IMG/VR virus record: IMGVR_UViG_3300032084_002128
Location: 1-35,254 of that record
Length of the DNA stretch: 35,254 nucleotides
From: a virus
Strand: one strand, 5' to 3'
Both the position numbers and the translations under genes were made by a program. Under the pieces are notes generated by a model. It was not told where the DNA came from and made no database searches. It was given only the letters and a program-made list of their open reading frames with translations. This document shows positions 5,848 to 32,168 of the stretch, in pieces (position 1 is the first letter of the stretch; each line of letters begins with the position of its first letter).

Positions 5848-5877
5848 GGATAAATACCCACCCCTTGTCAGAAATCC
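5848..5877 (-). promoter_or_regulatory. Late promoter P3 (fibre and tape measure unit)
   Basis: The minus strand has GGATTTCTGA, nine bases, then GGTATTTATCC. The spacing equals P1 and P2. The core ends 15 nt before the ATG at 5833, giving a very short leader. Confidence 0.65.
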
Positions 5878-12198: not shown

Positions 12199-14447
12199 GT
12201 CAGAGCAGAAAATGAATCAGCAGATATCAAGAAGATATTGCTTCCTAAGTGGTTCTGTGCATTTCTGAATTCAACACTTACATTGCCAACGCTTGAGTTG
12301 CCAGAAATGATCACACCTGAGTCTTCTTGAAGTGCTGTGCTTCCTAGGTGGTTGGTTGCAGAAGACAAGGTCCAAGAGCTGTCTGCATGTGCTCCATACA
12401 AGAGGACAGAGTAACCCGCTGCTGATCCCAGTGGTGAAGAGTTGTAGAACCCTATTGTGGTAGCCGTTGTAGAGCTGAACACTTGAAAGTGGCCAACAGA
12501 AAGGTCCACTACAAGCTCTGTTGCATCTGTCAGGGTCATTTCTGCTTCACTCAGTTCTGCCCTGTCTGTATAAAGAGAAGATACGGTAAGAAGGTTGCTG
12601 GAAGCATCATAAGTGAAGCCTGCTTCACTTGCTATGTCTTTTGAATTGTCCAAATAGAGAACACGACCTGCTGTCTGGTCTACCATCCTGATGGTGGCTC
12701 CGTTCTGGATAGCAAGCCTCACATTGTTCATGCTCGTATTAGCGCTTATGCTTCCTCCATTGGTATTGGATACGAAGTCTGACAATATAGTGTTGACAGG
12801 TGTTGTTCCAGAATAGAAAGTAGATGCTGTTAACGTAGTGAAATTTGGGTCCACATTGATAGTCGGAGCATCTTCTGTTCCACCAGTAGTGATATTTGTT
12901 CCTTGTTGTACGTAGGTCTTGTTGTGACTAGAACCTCCTCCTCCAAGAAGATCGTTCAATGGAGTTGAACCAGAATAGAAGGTCCCTCCTGAAATGATCG
13001 TTCCATTGATGTTCCCAACATTCATGGTACTACTTGATTCAACAAAAGTGAACCCTGTTGAAGAGTTGATGTTGAGGTTCCCATTGGAATTGCCCATGAA
13101 CAAGATCCCTTGATAGTTCTCTTGACTCAATTCCACATTCTGTTGGAATTGGAAATTCTCCAATGCTGTTCCTTCATCATTGAAGGTCACATCTTCCACT
13201 TGGAGACCTCCTGTGAAGGTTCCTCCTGATTGTGGAACATATACACCTGAGCCAGTTATCAATGTAGCAATGTCAACATATCCATTCTCACTATTTCCTG
13301 AGAAATATGTGGTTGCAGACAAAGAGGTGAAATTCGGATCCACATTGATGGTCGGAGCATCTTCTGTTCCACCAGTAGTGATATTTGTTCCTTGTTGTAC
13401 GTAGGTCTTGTTGTGTGTTGAGGCTGGTGGATGCCAAATAGGAATATCATTGATAGAGTAGACCTCATTGGTACCACTCATTTCCATGTGGATCTGATCT
13501 GGATTGAAATAGAACAGATTGTTGGACCTTGATGTTCCTATATAGCGTTGCAATTCACCTGACCCCCATGTCTGTACAACTGTGATAGCACCTAGTTGTG
13601 ACAACCAGTATTCTCTTCCATCCAAAGTTGCTGTTGGATGATATGCAAGACCTTGCACCAATGCATTGGTAGATGACCCTGAATTCACATTCTCAAGAGC
13701 AAGTCTTAATTCTGTTGATGCAGAATAGTGTGATTGATTGTCTGCCTTGTACCAAAGGTTGTCATACGCAATGAACAACACATCTCCTAAATTCACATCT
13801 TCTCCTACTGTGATGGAATCAGTCAATCCAGTAGCTGCAAGTCCACCTCCACCTGTGTTGCCGCTTATAGAGGCAATGTCCGCTTGTATCTGTGTTATGA
13901 TGGAACATCCAGAAAGATCACTGCAAGAAAAAGAGGAAGAACTTGAAGTTGTGCCACTGTAACCACTTCCAATGGTAGGGAGTGGATCGGTAGGTAGTTG
14001 GCATTCTCCTATGATATATGGACCTCTGACCTCAATGGTCATCACAGAACCTGCCAGTCCATCATTTCCTTTCACATAGAATGGTTCTGCTGTTGGACTG
14101 CCTTGGATCTCAAATCCAAGATCATAGAATTCACCTGCATCATTGAGCCTTCCTGCCATATCGAACAAGATGGACTCGGTATCACTCTGCACATCCACAA
14201 TATCACTGTCATCTTCGAACTTGTGGGACAAGCAGAACAAGGCCAATCTATGGGTCATGGTGTGGATATCCCCGTTTGCACCTCTTTCCAATGTCGATCC
14301 GATCGAATTGATCAGGACAGTAGGTGTCACAAGGTCTTTCTCATCTTGTTCAAAGATGTTGCTTACTCTGTATTCATTAACCCTCAAGTCTGACTCTGCC
14401 AGTCTTTCAAAGACTTGATATAGTGCTTTTAGTGTTGCGTTCTTCAT
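12195..14447 (-). CDS. Tail-terminator-like domain fused to fibre modules
   Basis: 750 aa. Residues 1-150 resemble tail terminator/completion proteins of Bacteroidota phages (FERLAESDLRVNEYRVSNIFEQD, a conserved late strand GSVMTIEVRGPYI). After a Ser-rich linker (160-180) come fibre-like beta modules. A 29-residue unit beginning HNKTYVQQGTNITTGG occurs at 345-373 and again at 508-536, encoded by an 87-bp near-perfect DNA repeat. A SGGTFTGGL shaft motif is near 407. The C-terminal domain resembles that of the fibre at 4685-5833. Tail terminators are usually about 130-150 aa and not fused, so this fusion is unusual; an assembly join is a possible alternative. It overlaps the chaperone stop by ATGA. 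Confidence 0.6.
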   Translation of the reverse strand: MKNATLKALYQVFERLAESDLRVNEYRVSNIFEQDEKDLVTPTVLINSIGSTLERGANGDIHTMTHRLALFCLSHKFEDDSDIVDVQSDTESILFDMAGRLNDAGEFYDLGFEIQGSPTAEPFYVKGNDGLAGSVMTIEVRGPYIIGECQLPTDPLPTIGSGYSGTTSSSSSFSCSDLSGCSIITQIQADIASISGNTGGGGLAATGLTDSITVGEDVNLGDVLFIAYDNLWYKADNQSHYSASTELRLALENVNSGSSTNALVQGLAYHPTATLDGREYWLSQLGAITVVQTWGSGELQRYIGTSRSNNLFYFNPDQIHMEMSGTNEVYSINDIPIWHPPASTHNKTYVQQGTNITTGGTEDAPTINVDPNFTSLSATTYFSGNSENGYVDIATLITGSGVYVPQSGGTFTGGLQVEDVTFNDEGTALENFQFQQNVELSQENYQGILFMGNSNGNLNINSSTGFTFVESSSTMNVGNINGTIISGGTFYSGSTPLNDLLGGGGSSHNKTYVQQGTNITTGGTEDAPTINVDPNFTTLTASTFYSGTTPVNTILSDFVSNTNGGSISANTSMNNVRLAIQNGATIRMVDQTAGRVLYLDNSKDIASEAGFTYDASSNLLTVSSLYTDRAELSEAEMTLTDATELVVDLSVGHFQVFSSTTATTIGFYNSSPLGSAAGYSVLLYGAHADSSWTLSSATNHLGSTALQEDSGVIISGNSSVGNVSVEFRNAQNHLGSNIFLISADSFSALT
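12840..12926 (-). repeat. 87-bp intragenic repeat, copy 2
   Basis: Codes for the second HNKTYVQQGTNITTGG unit (residues 508-536) of the terminator/fibre fusion. It differs from the copy at 13329-13415 at only about three bases. Confidence 0.85.
13329..13415 (-). repeat. 87-bp intragenic repeat, copy 1
   Basis: Codes for residues 345-373 of the same protein. High DNA identity over synonymous sites means a recent duplication or ongoing recombination between copies 489 bp apart. Confidence 0.85.
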
Positions 14448-16636: not shown

Positions 16637-16669
16637 GGATAAATACCCAGACCCCATCAGATATCCATT
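16637..16669 (-). promoter_or_regulatory. Late promoter P1 (terminase and tail operon)
   Basis: Minus strand: GGATATCTGA, nine bases, GGTATTTATCC, then AGAAACACCC and ATG. It shares TGAATGGATATC and the whole core region with P2. The ATG lies 11 nt past the core, so the mRNA would be nearly leaderless. Confidence 0.7.
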
Positions 16670-16913: not shown

Positions 16914-16935
16914 GTGCCTTCAAGTTGACCAATGT

Positions 16936-17004
16936 CTCCATCTGTCCACACTTTTCTGTGGATAAAAAGCGATAACAGCGGGTGAAAGGATGCCAGAACT
17001 TTGT
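16936..17004 (+). repeat. 69-bp direct repeat, copy A (partner at 29101)
   Basis: 67 of 69 bases match 29101-29169. It holds the inverted repeat TCCACA/TGTGGA (16945-16950 and 16957-16962), a perfect DnaA box TGTGGATAA (16957-16965), and at its end the first five codons of the HTH gene at 29155 (MPELC). Copy A then diverges. Confidence 0.9.
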
Positions 17005-17055: not shown

Positions 17056-17064
17056 CTATTTATA
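17056..17064 (+). promoter_or_regulatory. Early promoter for 17091-17700
   Basis: CTATTTATA after the pyrimidine tract TTTTTTCTCC. The ATG at 17091 is 27 nt further. It is the only early plus-strand site here without an intervening terminator. Confidence 0.55.
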
Positions 17065-19865: not shown

Positions 19866-20444
19866 TCACAGATCTGTGCTCAAAGTCTCAGAAGATCCAG
19901 AAGATTGCATAGATAATTGCACAGCATAGTGGTTGGAATCAGGAGGGGTTTCAACAAGATCAGTGGCTTCTATTTGTCTGGGAGCTGTGGGTGCATTGAG
20001 CTGGACAAAAGTTGGAGGTACATGTATGTGTGTTGATTTTTCGTCTGGATTGATCATATCCTGTGCTTGATTGAGCAATATCAGCTTGTATGCCACTCCA
20101 TTGATCTTGGGATTTTTGATGCCTTGGGAAACCAAGCGATCCTTGATCAGGGCTTTAACGCGACTGTGACAGGCAAAAAAACTCGGACTCCTGTTGCATA
20201 GAAACTTCAACAGACCATCATACCAAGGCACATCATCCTGCCTTGCAAAGAACCCCTCAAAGGTGTATGCATGCTCATTCTCTTTGAAATATTCCCACAT
20301 CCTTTCAGATAGGTCCTCAAGTCTTTCCTCAGTCCACTTCTCATACTTCTTCTTGATCCCATCTTTGTGATCACTCTTGGTTGGTGAAGGCTTCTCATTC
20401 CTTGGTCTCCCACCTTTGTTCTTTGGTTTCTCTTCTTCGCTCAT
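19866..20444 (-). CDS. Terminase small subunit-like DNA packaging protein
   Basis: 192 aa. A basic N-terminus with an AT-hook-like GGRPRNEK (11-18) leads to a helical domain, KWTEERLEDLSERMWEYFKENEHAYTFEGF, then DVPWYDGLLKFLCNRSPSFFACHSRVKALIKDRLVSQG. Helical small terminases (P22 gp3-like) from Bacteroidota prophages show this layout: 'L-E-A--E-Y-------FAR----Y-TL--W----P-F--A----K-----L---G'. It should bind pac DNA and guide TerL. It is the last gene of the cassette from 25253 and overlaps the GIY-YIG gene by ATGA; TerL is 3.2 kb away. The tail (150-192) is low-complexity. Confidence 0.65.
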   Translation of the reverse strand: MSEEEKPKNKGGRPRNEKPSPTKSDHKDGIKKKYEKWTEERLEDLSERMWEYFKENEHAYTFEGFFARQDDVPWYDGLLKFLCNRSPSFFACHSRVKALIKDRLVSQGIKNPKINGVAYKLILLNQAQDMINPDEKSTHIHVPPTFVQLNAPTAPRQIEATDLVETPPDSNHYAVQLSMQSSGSSETLSTDL

Positions 20445-21166
20445 TGTATTATGTATTCTGGTTCAACACCAATGACCCTCCATCCTTTGACAGACTTTTG
20501 CAATCCATTAACAACAAGTGATATGTTCCCTTTATGGTTGTGCAGATCATATTTTACTTTTAATTCATGTTGAGTCATCTTCTGAACTCCCTCAACAGGG
20601 TGATGAAAGTGATATACAACACTGGTATATGCAGGGTTATTCTCACCAGATTGTGCAAATTTCTGCTCTGTCATCCTCCATCCATTTGCAGACTTTCTCT
20701 TCCCACTTATTAATTGAGATAAGTTTCCCAGTCTAACATCATACTTTGATCCAAGACTATATTGTGTACATTCTTCTATCCCATGGTCATCATGATAGAA
20801 AATATGAACCTCATCCTTCCTGTGCTTCTCTCTTGTCTCTTCACTTACCACTCTCCCAAGTCCACCTCTTCCTTGTGTCATATTATACCCTTTGTCAGGT
20901 TCTAGAAGATCATATTGAACTATCAACTGTCTCTCTATATCCCACAAATTGTCATCAGGCAACTCATTCATATCAACCAACACCTCCCAATCAAATGACC
21001 ACTCACCCCACGTCCTGATGGCTTTGAAGAATTCGTTGTATGCTCCATAGTTCATAGCTGAACTAATATGTTGTCTCTTTCTTTTGTCAAGAGAATACTT
21101 GGTCCCACCAACATACTTCTTCCCTGTCATCTGACAGGTTGCCATATATATGATTCCTTCACTCAT
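20441..21166 (-). CDS. GIY-YIG homing endonuclease
   Basis: 241 aa. Catalytic domain at 1-95: GIIYMAT (4-10) and YVGGT (18-22) are the GIY and YIG strands, with Arg29 and His33 in SLDKRKRQH and the metal-binding Glu78 in WDIERQL. Two DNA-recognition repeats follow, at about 136-165 (YSLGSKYD, NLSQLISGKRKSANGWRM) and 203-233 (ELKVKYD, NISLVVNGLQKSVKGWRV), like the intron-encoded nuclease repeat motif. It is a free-standing homing enzyme, inserted cleanly into the operon with ATGA overlaps on both sides. No intron is visible. Confidence 0.9.
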   Translation of the reverse strand: MSEGIIYMATCQMTGKKYVGGTKYSLDKRKRQHISSAMNYGAYNEFFKAIRTWGEWSFDWEVLVDMNELPDDNLWDIERQLIVQYDLLEPDKGYNMTQGRGGLGRVVSEETREKHRKDEVHIFYHDDHGIEECTQYSLGSKYDVRLGNLSQLISGKRKSANGWRMTEQKFAQSGENNPAYTSVVYHFHHPVEGVQKMTQHELKVKYDLHNHKGNISLVVNGLQKSVKGWRVIGVEPEYIIQ

Positions 21167-23056: not shown

Positions 23057-23608
23057 TTATTTCTTCTTTTTTTTATATCGATCCTGACTGGCTTTTACTT
23101 TATCAGGATTCTCCTTTCTCCATTGCTTCTGGTACTCTTTATTTTTTTTTGTATCTCTTAATTTCTTCTGACTGGCTTTCGCCTTTTCAGGGTTCTCCTT
23201 TTTCCACTTTTTTGATCTCTCCTTGACCTTCTCCTTGTTCCTTTCGTAGTACTTCTTTTTGTAGGCTTTTACTTTATCTGCATTTTCCTTTGCCCACTTC
23301 TTGCTCTTTTTGATCACTGTCTTTCTGTTCTTCTGATACCACCTTCTTCTGACCTCTTTTTCCCAACCTTCTGGGTCCTCTTTCTGCATGATCACGTCCT
23401 TTGCCCATTGATCGCCTCCACCGCTTCTCTTGTTCCTGTGCTTCTTGGCTGACTCATATCCTCTATGAGGCTTGTTGGTGATGAATGCCAGTTCACAGAG
23501 TTCTTCATACCATCCTCTATCTTTGAAGGTCTGGGTTGCACCTGTCCAGATCTGGAACTTCTTGTCAGAGAGGTGTTCTTCTTTGGTGTATCCTTTCTCC
23601 TTCTTCAC
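23057..23608 (-). CDS. Lysine-rich repeat protein B
   Basis: 183 aa from the GTG at 23608; a TTG at 23671 would overlap the zinc-ribbon gene by 52 bp. The N-terminal 70 residues (KEEHLSDKKFQIWTG; WYEELCELAFITNKPHRGYES) are unique; residues 75-183 are strongly repetitive, with units KKWAKENADKVKAYKK, KYYERNKEKVKERSK, KKWKKENPEKAKASQK and WRKENPDKVKASQD. The start codon is uncertain. It has the same repeat type as the genes at 22464 and 23947. Confidence 0.6.
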   Translation of the reverse strand: MKKEKGYTKEEHLSDKKFQIWTGATQTFKDRGWYEELCELAFITNKPHRGYESAKKHRNKRSGGGDQWAKDVIMQKEDPEGWEKEVRRRWYQKNRKTVIKKSKKWAKENADKVKAYKKKYYERNKEKVKERSKKWKKENPEKAKASQKKLRDTKKNKEYQKQWRKENPDKVKASQDRYKKKKK

Positions 23609-23619
23609 GATCGACTTCT

Positions 23620-23784
23620 CTATTTGTCTTGCATGTAGATTACTTTCTGGACGTGACCACAGCCTTTGCAACTGTAGACATCCACCACCTCATACCTGCT
23701 TCCTTCCTCTGATCTCAGAGGTGTTGAGGAAGAGGTCTTCTCTGCCTTCTTGCTGCACATTCTGCATGTTGAGTCTGATTTCAT
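23620..23784 (-). CDS. Cys4 zinc-ribbon miniprotein
   Basis: 54 aa. CRMC (7-10) and CKGC (39-42) give a Cys4 zinc ribbon, with a long Ser/Glu-rich insert. It overlaps the upstream stop by ATGA. It is too short for long-ORF tracks but is the only frame that explains the region between its neighbours. Confidence 0.75.
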   Translation of the reverse strand: MKSDSTCRMCSKKAEKTSSSTPLRSEEGSRYEVVDVYSCKGCGHVQKVIYMQDK

Positions 23785-25898: not shown

Positions 25899-25907
25899 CT
25901 ATTTATA
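25899..25907 (+). promoter_or_regulatory. Early promoter, nearly leaderless
   Basis: CTATTTATA after CATTCTGT. The ATG at 25911 lies four bases past the core, so the mRNA would be leaderless or nearly so. Confidence 0.5.
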
Positions 25908-26354: not shown

Positions 26355-26519
26355 TAGGTCCTTGAGGAACCTGTCCATGTCCCCAGCTTCATCCACCAAC
26401 TTATCTTGACGATCCTCTATCCTTGCTTTTTTTCTATTGCGGATCCTCTCTCTTTTTTCTTTGAGTTTCCTTTCTTCTTCTTTTTTCTTGTATTGTTTGA
26501 GGATGTGTTCGTTCTTCAT
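26349..26519 (-). CDS. Small basic coiled-coil protein
   Basis: 56 aa, not in long-ORF tracks: MKNEHILKQYKKKEEERK, about 60 % charged, then an acidic end (DEAGDMDRFLKDLL). It lies head-on to the spanin-like gene with a six-base overlap. Its upstream neighbour is the terminator at 26577, so it probably has its own promoter or relies on read-through. Function unknown. Confidence 0.5.
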   Translation of the reverse strand: MKNEHILKQYKKKEEERKLKEKRERIRNRKKARIEDRQDKLVDEAGDMDRFLKDLL

Positions 26520-26576
26520 AATTCAAAGTTCTGGCATTTGGCCTGTTGTTGTTGTTGCTTTTTATCAACATAAAAA

Positions 26577-26613
26577 ATCCAGTGTGCCTCTCTCATGGAC
26601 AGACACACTGGAT
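26577..26613 (-). terminator. Intrinsic terminator downstream of TnpB
   Basis: A perfect 10-bp stem: ATCCAGTGTG (minus strand from 26613) with CACACTGGAT, 17-nt loop, then six T. Confidence 0.85.
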
Positions 26614-26615
26614 CA

Positions 26616-26726
26616 TCATACTTTTGTGGCCTTGATCTTCTCGATCATCAAGAGTTCACTGCCTTCTTCACTCTGTTGGTTGGAACGGCTCCCTCTCTTT
26701 CTATTTTGGATCAGGCTGCAACCCAC
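26616..26726 (-). CDS. Possible 36-aa protein or RNA downstream of TnpB
   Basis: A GTG at 26726, 22 nt past an early-type core, opens 36 codons (start VGCSLIQNRKRGSRSNQQ, end MIEKIKATKV), with the stop touching the terminator stem. Composition looks like protein. The alternative is that this 170-nt stretch, right after the TnpB stop, is the scaffold of a TnpB guide RNA. An earlier ATG at 26737 gives only eight codons. Confidence 0.35.
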   Translation of the reverse strand: MGCSLIQNRKRGSRSNQQSEEGSELLMIEKIKATKV

Positions 26727-26747
26727 AACCAGATCATATTCTTCTTA

Positions 26748-26756
26748 AATAAATAG
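26748..26756 (-). promoter_or_regulatory. Early-type promoter between TnpB stop and terminator
   Basis: Minus strand CTATTTATT after TTTTTCTGT, 30 bp past the TnpB stop. It would give an RNA of about 170 nt ending at 26577. Confidence 0.5.
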
Positions 26757-26785: not shown

Positions 26786-27814
26786 TCAGATCAGATCCTC
26801 TAGGTTCTTTGAGGCATTGAGATCTCTGTGGAGCACTGTATTGCATGAGGGACATTCCCATTGCCTTTGGGACAACTTGAGGTCCTTGTTGACCTCTCCA
26901 CAACTGTTGCACTTCTTCGATGATGGGAACCATCTATCTGCTTTGACAAGTCTCCTTCCATGGAATGCTGCCTTCTCTGCCAGTTGCTTGAAGAACTTCC
27001 CAAGACCTGCACTTCTGAGTGACAATTTCATTCCACCTGCACTGATCATCTGCTTCAAGTCCAAGTCCTCTACTGCGATGGCATCGAACTCCTGCACCAT
27101 ATAGGTAGAGATCTTGTGCAATCGGTCATGTCTTCTATTGTGGATCCTGATGGCAAGCCTACTCATCTTGTCCAATATCTTCTTGGCCTTTGCTGTATTC
27201 TGATCCAGCTTGTGCAGTTGTCCATAATAGAAGGACATCTTCTTTTGGATCTTCTCCAACTGCCTGTCATTGGAGATCTTCTTCCCAGTGGAGAGGGTTG
27301 CAAAGTCCTTGAGTCCCACATCAATTCCAACCTTCTTTCCAGTGCGCTCCAATTGATCCCCAGATGTGGAGCAGTAGATGCATATGAAGTACTTGTTGTT
27401 CTGCTTTGTGATCTTGGCAAATCTGACATTGCCTTTGATGGGCCTGTGCATGTTCATCTTGATGGGCTTCTTGAGTCCATAGAAGAACACCCTCTGATCT
27501 TCGATGGTGATCTTTGGGACGTTCATGGTCTGCTTGTTCTTGTTTGCCATGAATGCCATATCCTTCCTTCGTAGGTTGGACTTGAGGATCTTGAGTGATC
27601 CCTCAAGTATGGTTGTTGGGATCTTCCTTAACCACTTGTATTTGTCGGTTAGTTGTGGAAGGTCTTTGCTTGCTTTGTTGATATCGAAGAATTGGCCCTT
27701 CTTGACCTTTGCCATATGATGATTGAAGACCTTCCTGTTGCCATGGAAGCACAGGTCCAATGTCCTCTTTTGTTCTTTAGATGGAAGGAGTTGATATTTG
27801 AATGTGATCCACAT
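26786..27814 (-). CDS. tnpB: TnpB (IS200/IS605 OrfB) RNA-guided nuclease, RuvC intact
   Basis: 342 aa from the ATG at 27814 (MWITFKYQLLP). RuvC residues are all present: D165 in GIDVGLKDFA, E249 in AIAVEDLD, D331 in HRDLNASKN. A Cys4 zinc knuckle (C302, C305, C321, C324) lies between the last two. The N-terminal part resembles the usual helical/WED region. No TnpA and no element end is visible: the start codon shares one base with the stop of the upstream sigma-like gene (TGATG), so the gene sits in a phage operon. TnpB cleaves DNA guided by an RNA from its 3' end; here the phage may have adopted it. A recent insertion is unlikely from the exact overlap. Confidence 0.93.
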   Translation of the reverse strand: MWITFKYQLLPSKEQKRTLDLCFHGNRKVFNHHMAKVKKGQFFDINKASKDLPQLTDKYKWLRKIPTTILEGSLKILKSNLRRKDMAFMANKNKQTMNVPKITIEDQRVFFYGLKKPIKMNMHRPIKGNVRFAKITKQNNKYFICIYCSTSGDQLERTGKKVGIDVGLKDFATLSTGKKISNDRQLEKIQKKMSFYYGQLHKLDQNTAKAKKILDKMSRLAIRIHNRRHDRLHKISTYMVQEFDAIAVEDLDLKQMISAGGMKLSLRSAGLGKFFKQLAEKAAFHGRRLVKADRWFPSSKKCNSCGEVNKDLKLSQRQWECPSCNTVLHRDLNASKNLEDLI

Positions 27815-28518
27815 CAGTAATCCCAGATATTTGGTGGTTCCTGTCCGAACATCAGAGGGTAGTTCTTCACAATGATCTCCTCTACTCTTTTGACAGTGGC
27901 ACATATGGTGGACCTTGGAATGGTGGTCTTCTCGTGGATCTGATCATATGTGGGGAACTTCCCATTAGTGCCCCATGGTTGCTTCTTGAACCAATTGAAT
28001 CTGTATATGGCATACAGTTGAGCCTCCCACCAATGACAATGGGTCAACAATAGCTGATCCAAGTTCTCTCTGAATTTGACCACCTCTTCCTTTCTGGTTG
28101 GCTCATCAGGTTCTGTTATTGAATAGAAGGGTGTCTTGAATTCGGTCTGTGCAGTGGTCTTCTCAAGATATCGTTCAAAGAGCCTGTACCACTTGCTGTC
28201 ACCAAATTTGAATTGTCTTTCACACATGGTCCAGATGAATGCTCTGAACTCATGGTTCCTCTTGTTGAATAGATTGAGGATGGTCTTTGTCTTTCTTCCA
28301 GATTCCAAGACCTCTCCTACAAGGAAGGCCAATGCATCATCTTTAAGTGTTCTGTATTTGAGAGAATTGTCGATCATGTCTGAGAAGATGTTCCACTTGT
28401 CCTCATATATGATCATGGCAATCTCATCAATGGTTGCTGCTGTTGCTGCTGCTAGTTGTTGATTCCTCCAACTATCATCAAATGAAGTGGTCCCTGTTAT
28501 TTGCATGAAAGCCTCCAT
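27814..28518 (-). CDS. Phage sigma-70-like factor
   Basis: 234 aa. The middle has a region-2-like helix set (DEIAMIIYEDKWNIFSDM; LFNKRNHEFRAFIWTMCERQFKF) and the end has a region-4-like helix-turn-helix (HWWEAQLYAIYRFNWFKK; TYDQIHEKTTIPRSTICATVKRVEEIIVKNY, with the 'IP-S-I---V' recognition helix). This layout matches sigma-like proteins found in many Bacteroidota phages by memory. It likely directs host RNA polymerase to phage promoters. The gene overlaps its neighbours on both sides by 22 and 1 bases. The call is by pattern, not by search. Confidence 0.6.
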   Translation of the reverse strand: MEAFMQITGTTSFDDSWRNQQLAAATAATIDEIAMIIYEDKWNIFSDMIDNSLKYRTLKDDALAFLVGEVLESGRKTKTILNLFNKRNHEFRAFIWTMCERQFKFGDSKWYRLFERYLEKTTAQTEFKTPFYSITEPDEPTRKEEVVKFRENLDQLLLTHCHWWEAQLYAIYRFNWFKKQPWGTNGKFPTYDQIHEKTTIPRSTICATVKRVEEIIVKNYPLMFGQEPPNIWDY

Positions 28519-28997
28519 TGTCCTTCTCTGATGTATTTGTTGTATTTCAGGAAAAGGGGCACAATGGATTCATAGAAGAATTGTCCACCGTCAAAGCCTC
28601 TGTGATAGGACTCTGCAACATTCCAAGTGAAGTTGATCATGGCTTTCAAGATCTTGTCTGCCAGTTCATATTGCTCTTTGGATACGAACACTGCCAAGGC
28701 ATAGAAGCCTTGGTCATATAGTCCTATCATCTTCTTGAAGAGTTTGACCATTATTGGCTCTTTGTCTTTCAGGTAGTTGTCAAATCCAACCACGTCTGTG
28801 ATCTGGATATCCTCTATCTCTGCCTGATCTTTGAATGAGTCTGATACTCTTGTTGCTGTGATCAATGTGAGAGGGAAGAATTCAGCCTCCTGTCTGAGCC
28901 TTTGCTTGGGATCTGTTCTGTTCAACAGATCTTGAATGCTCAGTTCTATCAGTGCTTTTTTAGTTTCTATGTCCACTATATCTTTCAAATTCCACAT
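28497..28997 (-). CDS. Unknown protein upstream of sigma-like factor
   Basis: 166 aa, largely helical, soluble. Noticeable parts are DLLNRTDPKQRLRQEAEFFPL, TDVVGFDNYLKDKEPIMVKLFKKMIGLYDQGFYALAVFVSKEQ and FTWNVAESYHRGFDGG. No motif recognised. First full gene after the promoter at 29076; a 29-codon frame precedes it. It overlaps the sigma-like gene by 22 bp. Candidate partner or anti-sigma by position only. Confidence 0.65.
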   Translation of the reverse strand: MWNLKDIVDIETKKALIELSIQDLLNRTDPKQRLRQEAEFFPLTLITATRVSDSFKDQAEIEDIQITDVVGFDNYLKDKEPIMVKLFKKMIGLYDQGFYALAVFVSKEQYELADKILKAMINFTWNVAESYHRGFDGGQFFYESIVPLFLKYNKYIREGQWRLSCK

Positions 28998-29075: not shown

Positions 29076-29084
29076 AATAAATAG
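29076..29084 (-). promoter_or_regulatory. Early promoter for sigma/TnpB operon
   Basis: Minus strand CTATTTATT after TTTTTTCCAC. It is back to back with the 69-bp repeat that precedes the HTH gene. Confidence 0.55.
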
Positions 29085-29100
29085 GTGGAAAAAAGAAAGC

Positions 29101-29169
29101 CTCCATCTGTCCACACTTTTCTGTGGATAAAAAGCGATAACAGCGGACGAAAGGATGCCAGAACTTTGT
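29101..29169 (+). repeat. 69-bp direct repeat, copy B
   Basis: Matches 16936-17004 at 67 of 69 bases (differences GT/AC at 29147-29148). It contains the DnaA box TGTGGATAA at 29122-29130, the TCCACA/TGTGGA dyad and the start of the HTH gene. It is the probable regulatory region of that gene. Confidence 0.9.
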
Positions 29170-29604
29170 CCTATGGACGATCTAAGGACCACGCTGCAAG
29201 GCATATATGATGAGTTGGGAAGTCTTTCCCATGAAGATGATATGAAGGCAGGTCTTGTGAAGGCACATAGCTTCTGGCAAGACCTCAAGACCATCAATAG
29301 ACTAAGGCAGTTGGAAGACTTGACACAACCCCAAGATCAAGTTGTCGTGATCGAAGAATTGGAAGACCACCTTGATTTCAATCAGGTCCTTTCCATTGTG
29401 TCATTTGGAAAGAGTACTCTGAGGAACTATATCAAGGATGGTCTTTTGGTTTACAAGGAAAAGAGAGGGGGAAGAAGCAAGCATCTATACTCCAAGGAAG
29501 AAGTCTTGGTCCTTGACGATCAATACAAGGCACAGCAGAGAAAGAGGTACAAAAAGAAAGGGACCCCCTCTCAGAAGTCCCTTGCTCTTGTTGATCACCT
29601 CTGA
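29155..29604 (+). CDS. Helix-turn-helix protein, excisionase- or repressor-like
   Basis: 149 aa. Residues 76-125 (FNQVLSIVSFGKSTLRNYIKDGLL, then GRSKHLYSKEEVLVL) form a MerR/excisionase-type winged helix ('S-TLR-YI-DGLL---K--G--++Y---E') as in Bacteroidota HTH_17-like regulators next to integrases. The N-terminal half is helical, and the C-terminus basic (KAQQRKRYKKKGTP). It is convergent with the integrase, separated by four bases, and its start lies in a repeat with an operator-like dyad. Excision control or lysogeny regulation are likely roles. Confidence 0.65.
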   Translation: MPELCPMDDLRTTLQGIYDELGSLSHEDDMKAGLVKAHSFWQDLKTINRLRQLEDLTQPQDQVVVIEELEDHLDFNQVLSIVSFGKSTLRNYIKDGLLVYKEKRGGRSKHLYSKEEVLVLDDQYKAQQRKRYKKKGTPSQKSLALVDHL

Positions 29605-31580: not shown

Positions 31581-32168
31581 TTAATCAAGCACAAATTCAG
31601 GGTCATCATATTTGACCCTGTACATCAATATGTCTCTCTTCTTGCAATATTGATCCTTCATTCCATCTAGTTCTTGTTGCCTTTTTAGACCCTCTTCTCC
31701 ACCCCATATGGATCTGGATTCTGAGTGTCCGATCCCATCCCATTCAATGGCTGATCCATTCTCTCCTATCTCTGGAAGGAAGAAATCAAATCTCATTGCA
31801 TGTGGCATGTCAGGTCTTGACCTGTTGTATTCATATTTGATGTTGGAAATATCCAAGGCCTTCTTGATCGATCGTTCACCACTTGACATAGAAGGATCAT
31901 ATCCAAGAAAATCAGACCAACCATTCCAACCCTTGTTCTTGTATGTTCTCCATGCTGCAAATGGAATGTTGCTCGGTTTATTGTTGGTGTGCCACTGATA
32001 GAATTCTTCTCTTGATGAAAAGTTCAAGGACCTTACAAAGTCCCTTGAATCACTAAATGTGAAGTATCCATTGACCTTTGTTTCTTCTTTGGGTTCATCA
32101 TTCGTATTGAACAGTGAATCCAACATTTGATCCCATTCTGTTGTTGTTGGTAACCAATTGCTCTTCAT
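31581..32168 (-). CDS. VSR-like homing endonuclease with integrase-repeat module
   Basis: 195 aa. The N-terminal half (36-89, FSDSRDFVRSLNFSSREEFY, then NIPFAAWRTYKNKGWNGWSDFLG) matches the 'phage-integrase repeat unit', a short DNA-recognition repeat. The C-terminal half is a VSR/DUF559-like nuclease: E98 in GERSIKKAL, D128 in MRFDFFLP, E142 and D144 in IEWDGIGH148, and DQYCKKRDILMYRVKY. This combination occurs in free-standing phage homing enzymes. It stands between the head genes and attP; its stop lies 17 bases from the right arm repeat. Confidence 0.75.
   Translation of the reverse strand: MKSNWLPTTTEWDQMLDSLFNTNDEPKEETKVNGYFTFSDSRDFVRSLNFSSREEFYQWHTNNKPSNIPFAAWRTYKNKGWNGWSDFLGYDPSMSSGERSIKKALDISNIKYEYNRSRPDMPHAMRFDFFLPEIGENGSAIEWDGIGHSESRSIWGGEEGLKRQQELDGMKDQYCKKRDILMYRVKYDDPEFVLD

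What the first reader, a model, noticed from the sequence alone, without database searches (positions are those of the whole stretch)
26786..28518. TnpB with intact RuvC, start-stop coupled to a phage sigma-like factor
Seen: the tnpB ATG shares one base with the stop of the upstream gene (TGATG); D165, E249, D331 and the Cys4 knuckle are present; no TnpA or element ends are visible. Known: TnpB (IS200/IS605) is an RNA-guided nuclease, and Cas12f relatives paired with sigma factors have been described for RNA-guided transcription. Inference: the phage keeps TnpB as an operon gene, perhaps for competition against rival phages or as part of gene control with the sigma-like factor.
Basis: partly seen in the sequence, partly recalled or inferred. 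Interest (0 to 1): 0.85.

Follow-up and report, generated by a model that had tools for sequence, protein, structure and literature searches.

The report
Phage TnpB behind a sigma-factor gene
A divergent phage, probably of Bacteroidota bacteria, carries an intact gene for the small RNA-guided DNA cutter TnpB directly behind a real but very divergent sigma-factor gene; the sigma gene belongs to this group of phages, but the TnpB next to it was found in no other phage we could examine, so the pair is probably a lineage-specific gene arrangement and not a conserved machine.

Summary
tnpB (26786-27814, minus) starts at the ATG of TGATG at the upstream gene's stop; D165/E249/D331 and Cys 302/305/321/324 are intact; no TnpA was found. 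The upstream 234-aa protein hits no Pfam, PHROG, NCBIfam or PDB entry alone. It matches a sigma-like family that I found in related phage contigs (46.4 bits; best of 5000 shuffles 9.2), and that family matches Bacteroidota ECF sigma factors over regions 2 and 4 (hhalign 99.4%; reversed control 0.15%). So "sigma-like" holds. The claimed pairing does not generalise: the six sigma-bearing relatives searched whole lack TnpB, no related terminase locus carries it, and none of 85 nearest viral TnpB loci has this sigma gene; overlapping the next gene is normal for the family. Intact RuvC is the norm (85/85), so a dCas12f- or TldR-like regulator is disfavoured. This TnpB is very divergent (branch 2.06 against median 0.09) yet keeps its catalytic site. 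Best explanation: a lineage-specific, nuclease-competent TnpB without detectable transposon ends, co-transcribed with a probable late-gene sigma factor and kept as an RNA-guided, homing-type or rival-excluding nuclease. Its guide RNA could not be identified.

The parts
26786..27814 (-). tnpB, 342 aa, RuvC triad D165/E249/D331 and Cys4 zinc knuckle intact
27814..28518 (-). sigma-like protein (234 aa), divergent member of a phage sigma family; regions 2 and 4 align
27812..27816 (-). TGATG start-stop overlap of the sigma-like gene and tnpB
28497..28997 (-). first gene of the operon, 166 aa, no homologue found; overlaps the sigma-like gene by 22 bases
29077..29083 (-). TATTTAT promoter-like motif 80 bases upstream of the three-gene operon
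26577..26755 (-). short transcription unit right after tnpB: TATTTAT at 26755-26749, structured region, intrinsic terminator hairpin 26613-26577 followed by T6; candidate guide RNA of TnpB, or operon 3' region / 36-codon GTG ORF
   Evidence: (fold z -2.8); function inferred

Best explanation
The locus is the regulatory operon of a temperate tailed phage, probably of Bacteroidota. Its second gene is an ECF-like sigma factor that, in related phages, sits a few kilobases ahead of the terminase genes; it probably redirects host RNA polymerase to phage promoters for late genes. The third gene is a full-length, nuclease-competent TnpB that occupies the slot behind the sigma gene in this lineage only. 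It is co-transcribed and translationally coupled with the sigma gene. It most likely works as other TnpBs do: it binds an RNA made from its own 3' region and cuts matching DNA next to a short motif. The likely benefit is copying or keeping its own locus (homing-type behaviour) or excluding related phages. Shown: gene identities, overlap, intact catalytic residues, sigma homology, absence of TnpA, absence of the pair elsewhere in the collections. Inferred: co-transcription, late-gene role of the sigma factor, cleavage activity, guide source and biological benefit.
For: TnpB identity and intact site. Very long branch (2.06 against a median of 0.092) with the catalytic and zinc residues still conserved, which implies purifying selection on nuclease function over a long time. 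No TnpA in the window, while several TnpB-bearing relatives carry it. Sigma homology: family HMM 46.4 bits against best shuffle 9.2; family against ECF profile hhalign 99.4%, E 5.8e-22, reversed control 0.15%; two family members pass Pfam's Sigma70_r4_2 cut-off. In relatives the sigma gene lies upstream of terminase and usually overlaps its next gene by 3-55 bases, with small genes there instead of tnpB. The phage also carries a GIY-YIG homing endonuclease, an EDxHD/HNH-type nuclease and an HNH-like protein, so homing-type nuclease genes are common in it. The operon and late genes share a TATTTAT promoter-like motif.
Against: No guide RNA, target or adjacent motif could be identified; no self-match of the 3' region longer than 12 bases was found beyond polypyrimidine runs and the promoter motif itself. 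The nearest relatives are distant (TerL 36%, TnpB 37%), so a clade of close phages with the same pair could exist unseen. The long branch could also reflect relaxed selection outside the active site.
Confidence: 0.55

Rival explanations
1. tnpB is an ordinary stranded IS200/IS605-type passenger: a TnpB-only element that inserted at the end of the sigma gene, mobilised in trans by a TnpA elsewhere, with no phage function.
For: TnpB genes are common in phages (381 GenBank phage records) and several TnpB-bearing relatives hold a TnpA. The pair is not seen elsewhere.
Against: tnpB begins exactly at the sigma stop codon, about 15 codons after the HTH and near where relatives' proteins end, leaving no room for a left end outside the sigma gene. 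Catalytic residues survive on a very long branch. No closely similar TnpB exists in the collections searched, unlike what a recent insertion would suggest.
Confidence: 0.28
2. TnpB and the sigma-like factor form one functional unit, for example RNA-guided recruitment of RNA polymerase or TnpB control of the sigma operon.
For: One-base gene overlap; the sigma homology is real; a terminator-bounded structured region follows tnpB.
Against: RuvC is intact, whereas known TnpB-derived transcription factors (TldR) lost nuclease activity (PMC13418256). Sigma relatives have no TnpB and TnpB relatives have no such sigma gene. Overlap with whatever gene follows is normal for this sigma family.
Confidence: 0.1
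3. tnpB is expressed but no longer functional as a nuclease (relaxed selection), kept only by position.
For: Extreme divergence; shortened N-terminal regions and no C-terminal tail relative to homologues.
Against: Open frame with all seven catalytic and zinc residues conserved.
Confidence: 0.07

Closest known systems
IS200/IS605 TnpB (ISDra2 TnpB, PDB 8bf8)
   Same: Same domain order, RuvC D/E/D, Cys4 zinc knuckle, length class; phmmer E 1.9e-32
   Different: No TnpA, no recognisable ends, gene packed into a phage operon, about 37% identity to the nearest TnpB found
TldR (TnpB-derived nuclease-dead repressors in phages)
   Same: TnpB homologue in a temperate phage next to a non-transposon gene
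   Different: TldR has an inactivated RuvC (PMC13418256); here RuvC is intact
Sigma-linked dead Cas12f systems of Bacteroidota (own knowledge; no paper on them found in the library)
   Same: A small TnpB/Cas12f-superfamily protein next to an ECF-like sigma gene in a Bacteroidota-type genome
   Different: Nuclease is not dead; it is TnpB-class; the pair is not conserved
ECF sigma-70 factors / phage sigma-like late activators
   Same: Regions 2 and 4 align with ECF sigma factors; genome position ahead of terminase in relatives
   Different: Too divergent for any Pfam, PHROG or NCBIfam model

Membership tests
TnpB RNA-guided nuclease | Sequence match over a curated family cut-off | tested here: met
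   PF07282 71 bits (cut-off 26.3), PF01385 69.7 (30.5), NF040570 188 (100)
TnpB RNA-guided nuclease | RuvC D/E/D triad and Cys4 zinc knuckle | tested here: met
   D165, E249, D331; C302, C305, C321, C324
TnpB RNA-guided nuclease | Guide (omega/re) RNA from the 3' end of the gene | tested here: inconclusive
   Structured region downstream, z -2.8, no Rfam match, no homologue to align
TnpB RNA-guided nuclease | RNA-guided DNA cleavage next to a TAM | not testable with these tools
   Needs biochemistry
IS200/IS605 element | TnpA (Y1 HUH transposase) present | tested here: not met
   PF01797 absent from the window
IS200/IS605 element | Left and right ends flanking tnpB | tested here: inconclusive
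   No close relative with an empty site; repeats near tnpB are promoter-like, not element ends
TldR | RuvC active site lost | tested here: not met
   Triad intact
Sigma-linked dead Cas12f system | Nuclease-dead effector | tested here: not met
   Triad intact
Sigma-linked dead Cas12f system | Conserved adjacency to a sigma factor | tested here: not met
   No pair in related contigs or at 85 TnpB loci
Sigma-70/ECF factor | Regions 2 and 4 by sequence profile | tested here: met
   Through a 26-member phage family: 46.4 bits, then family against ECF profile 99.4%; direct searches negative
Sigma-70/ECF factor | Sigma fold | tested here: inconclusive
   Single-sequence model pLDDT 44; top Foldseek matches are sigma factors but best E 0.21

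The most novel reading that the evidence does not exclude
A nuclease-active TnpB has been recruited by a temperate phage into its sigma-factor operon, with its own promoter-terminator guide-RNA unit (26755-26577), as an RNA-guided weapon or switch tied to late gene expression.
Probability: 0.12. Interest if true: 0.75.

Novelty: new variant of a known kind. Interest (0 to 1): 0.42.

Why it matters
If the TnpB is active it would be a case of a transposon nuclease kept in a phage regulatory operon with its cutting activity intact, unlike the nuclease-dead TldR route. The sigma-like family in related phages is invisible to Pfam, PHROG and NCBIfam for its divergent members and gives a testable candidate for how these phages switch on late genes, together with a clear promoter motif.

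Tried and rejected
Single-protein scans of viral contigs with the sigma-like protein, TnpB and TerL found nothing. Direct sigma evidence by HMM or hhalign from the single sequence was weak, within the range of shuffles (the first of these used only four sigma sequences and was superseded); it became strong only through the phage family. The AlphaFold models of both upstream proteins are poor. L128 looked like a sigma-TnpB pair but its upstream gene is an HTH-HNH endonuclease. The inverted repeat 26517-26575 / 29117-29175 around the operon was considered as element ends and rejected: the same sequence recurs at 16931-17004 as a direct repeat, with DnaA-box-like TTATCCACA, next to promoters. A guide matching elsewhere in the phage was sought and not found. 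DNA-pattern scans for close relatives by the repeat or the late promoter found none; the one match, L274, is unrelated. TnpB is nearly absent from 296 genomes related to the Maribacter genome that holds the best terminase match.

Full report
The window is one 35,254-base IMG/VR viral record. It has a terminase, portal, tape measure and prohead protease, and an integrase-like protein, so it is a tailed phage and probably temperate. Its terminase is closest, among GenBank phages, to Flavobacterium phage 11b and Cellulophaga phage phi10:1 at 34%, and further relatives are almost all from Bacteroidota genomes. No close relative was found in any collection.

TnpB is certain by several curated families and by similarity to ISDra2 TnpB. 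The ATG shares one base with the upstream TGA. The operon actually has three genes: 28497-28997 (166 aa, no homologue found), 27814-28518 (sigma-like) and tnpB.

The sigma claim needed work. The 234-aa protein matches nothing directly, even at E 10, and a direct test against 30 Bacteroidota ECF sigma factors gave only a weak region-4 alignment, with one of 100 shuffles scoring higher. A search of terminase-related viral contigs gave one weak match (E 7.8e-5), whose gene proved to belong to a family found in about 20 further contigs. Two members pass Pfam's Sigma70_r4_2 cut-off. A family HMM built without the window protein scores it at 46.4 bits over residues 39-219, against 9.2 for the best of 5000 shuffles. 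The family aligns with the ECF profile over 154 columns at 99.4% probability; the reversed alignment gives 0.15%. So the protein is a divergent sigma-like factor. In L174 the sigma gene follows an HNH protein, which by my own reading resembles NinG, and precedes the terminase by about 3 kb; this suggests a late-gene activator role, by analogy with other phages (inference).

Thirty-six related viral or phage records searched whole with TnpB had no match; six of them carry the sigma family. None of the 149 terminase-related loci has TnpB; the 85 loci that match are exactly the TnpB-selected ones. Near the 85 closest viral TnpBs no gene matches the phage sigma family convincingly, and the one gene that matched the ECF profile directly upstream of tnpB is an HTH-HNH endonuclease. 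Members of the sigma family usually overlap their next gene, so TGATG coupling is the family's ordinary packing and not evidence of partnership.

What the TnpB does. It has the longest branch by far in a tree of 85 TnpBs (2.06 against a median end branch of 0.092; nearest 37% identity) while keeping every catalytic residue. I read this as long residence with nuclease activity retained. All 85 viral relatives also keep the triad, so intact RuvC is not itself remarkable. Nuclease-dead models (TldR, sigma-linked dead Cas12f) do not fit. The phage carries several homing-type endonucleases, and an RNA-guided homing or exclusion nuclease fits that setting. The guide RNA is unknown. The best candidate is the 180 bases after tnpB, which have their own promoter-like motif, a structured middle (z -2.8) and a strong terminator, but they could also hold a 36-codon ORF with a GTG start.

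A promoter motif emerged. TATTTAT occurs 16 times, 13 of them in the 11% of intergenic sequence; it is the most intergenic-enriched 7-mer in the window. One copy precedes the operon and one follows tnpB. It also ranks second in one sigma-bearing relative (L170) and fifth in another (L174), but not in several others, so its link to this sigma factor is only a lead.

Limits: the collections hold no close relative; the guide, target and element ends are untested; the structural model is poor; the phage record may be incomplete; the sigma family was collected from a capped scan, and many of the related contigs are fragments, so absence of TnpB in them is weaker evidence than absence from complete genomes.

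Noticed in passing
window, 14 sites, e.g. 5850-5856, 16639-16645, 17057-17063, 25900-25906, 29077-29083: TATTTAT promoter-like motif strongly enriched between genes; before late genes it is extended to TGGATATC...GGGTATTTATCCAGAAACACCC.
   Followed up: partly
16931-17004 (+), 29096-29169 (+), 26517-26575 (-): 74-base repeat (95% identical between two copies) with DnaA-box-like TGTGGATAA; possible replication origin or control region.
   Followed up: partly
20441-21166, 31581-32168, 23057-23671 (all minus): GIY-YIG homing endonuclease, EDxHD/HNH-type homing nuclease and an HNH-like protein: the phage is rich in homing-type genes.
   Followed up: no
L170 7524-8270 and 8431-8973: A related phage contig carries two adjacent sigma-like genes, one of them (248 aa) resembling a full sigma-70 factor.
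   Followed up: no
L128 219-1010 and 943-2169: Another viral contig has a TnpB overlapping an upstream HTH-HNH homing-type endonuclease, with a partial TnpA beside it.
   Followed up: partly
12806-12926 and 13295-13415: 121-base duplication (86% identical) inside the 750-aa structural protein gene.
   Followed up: no
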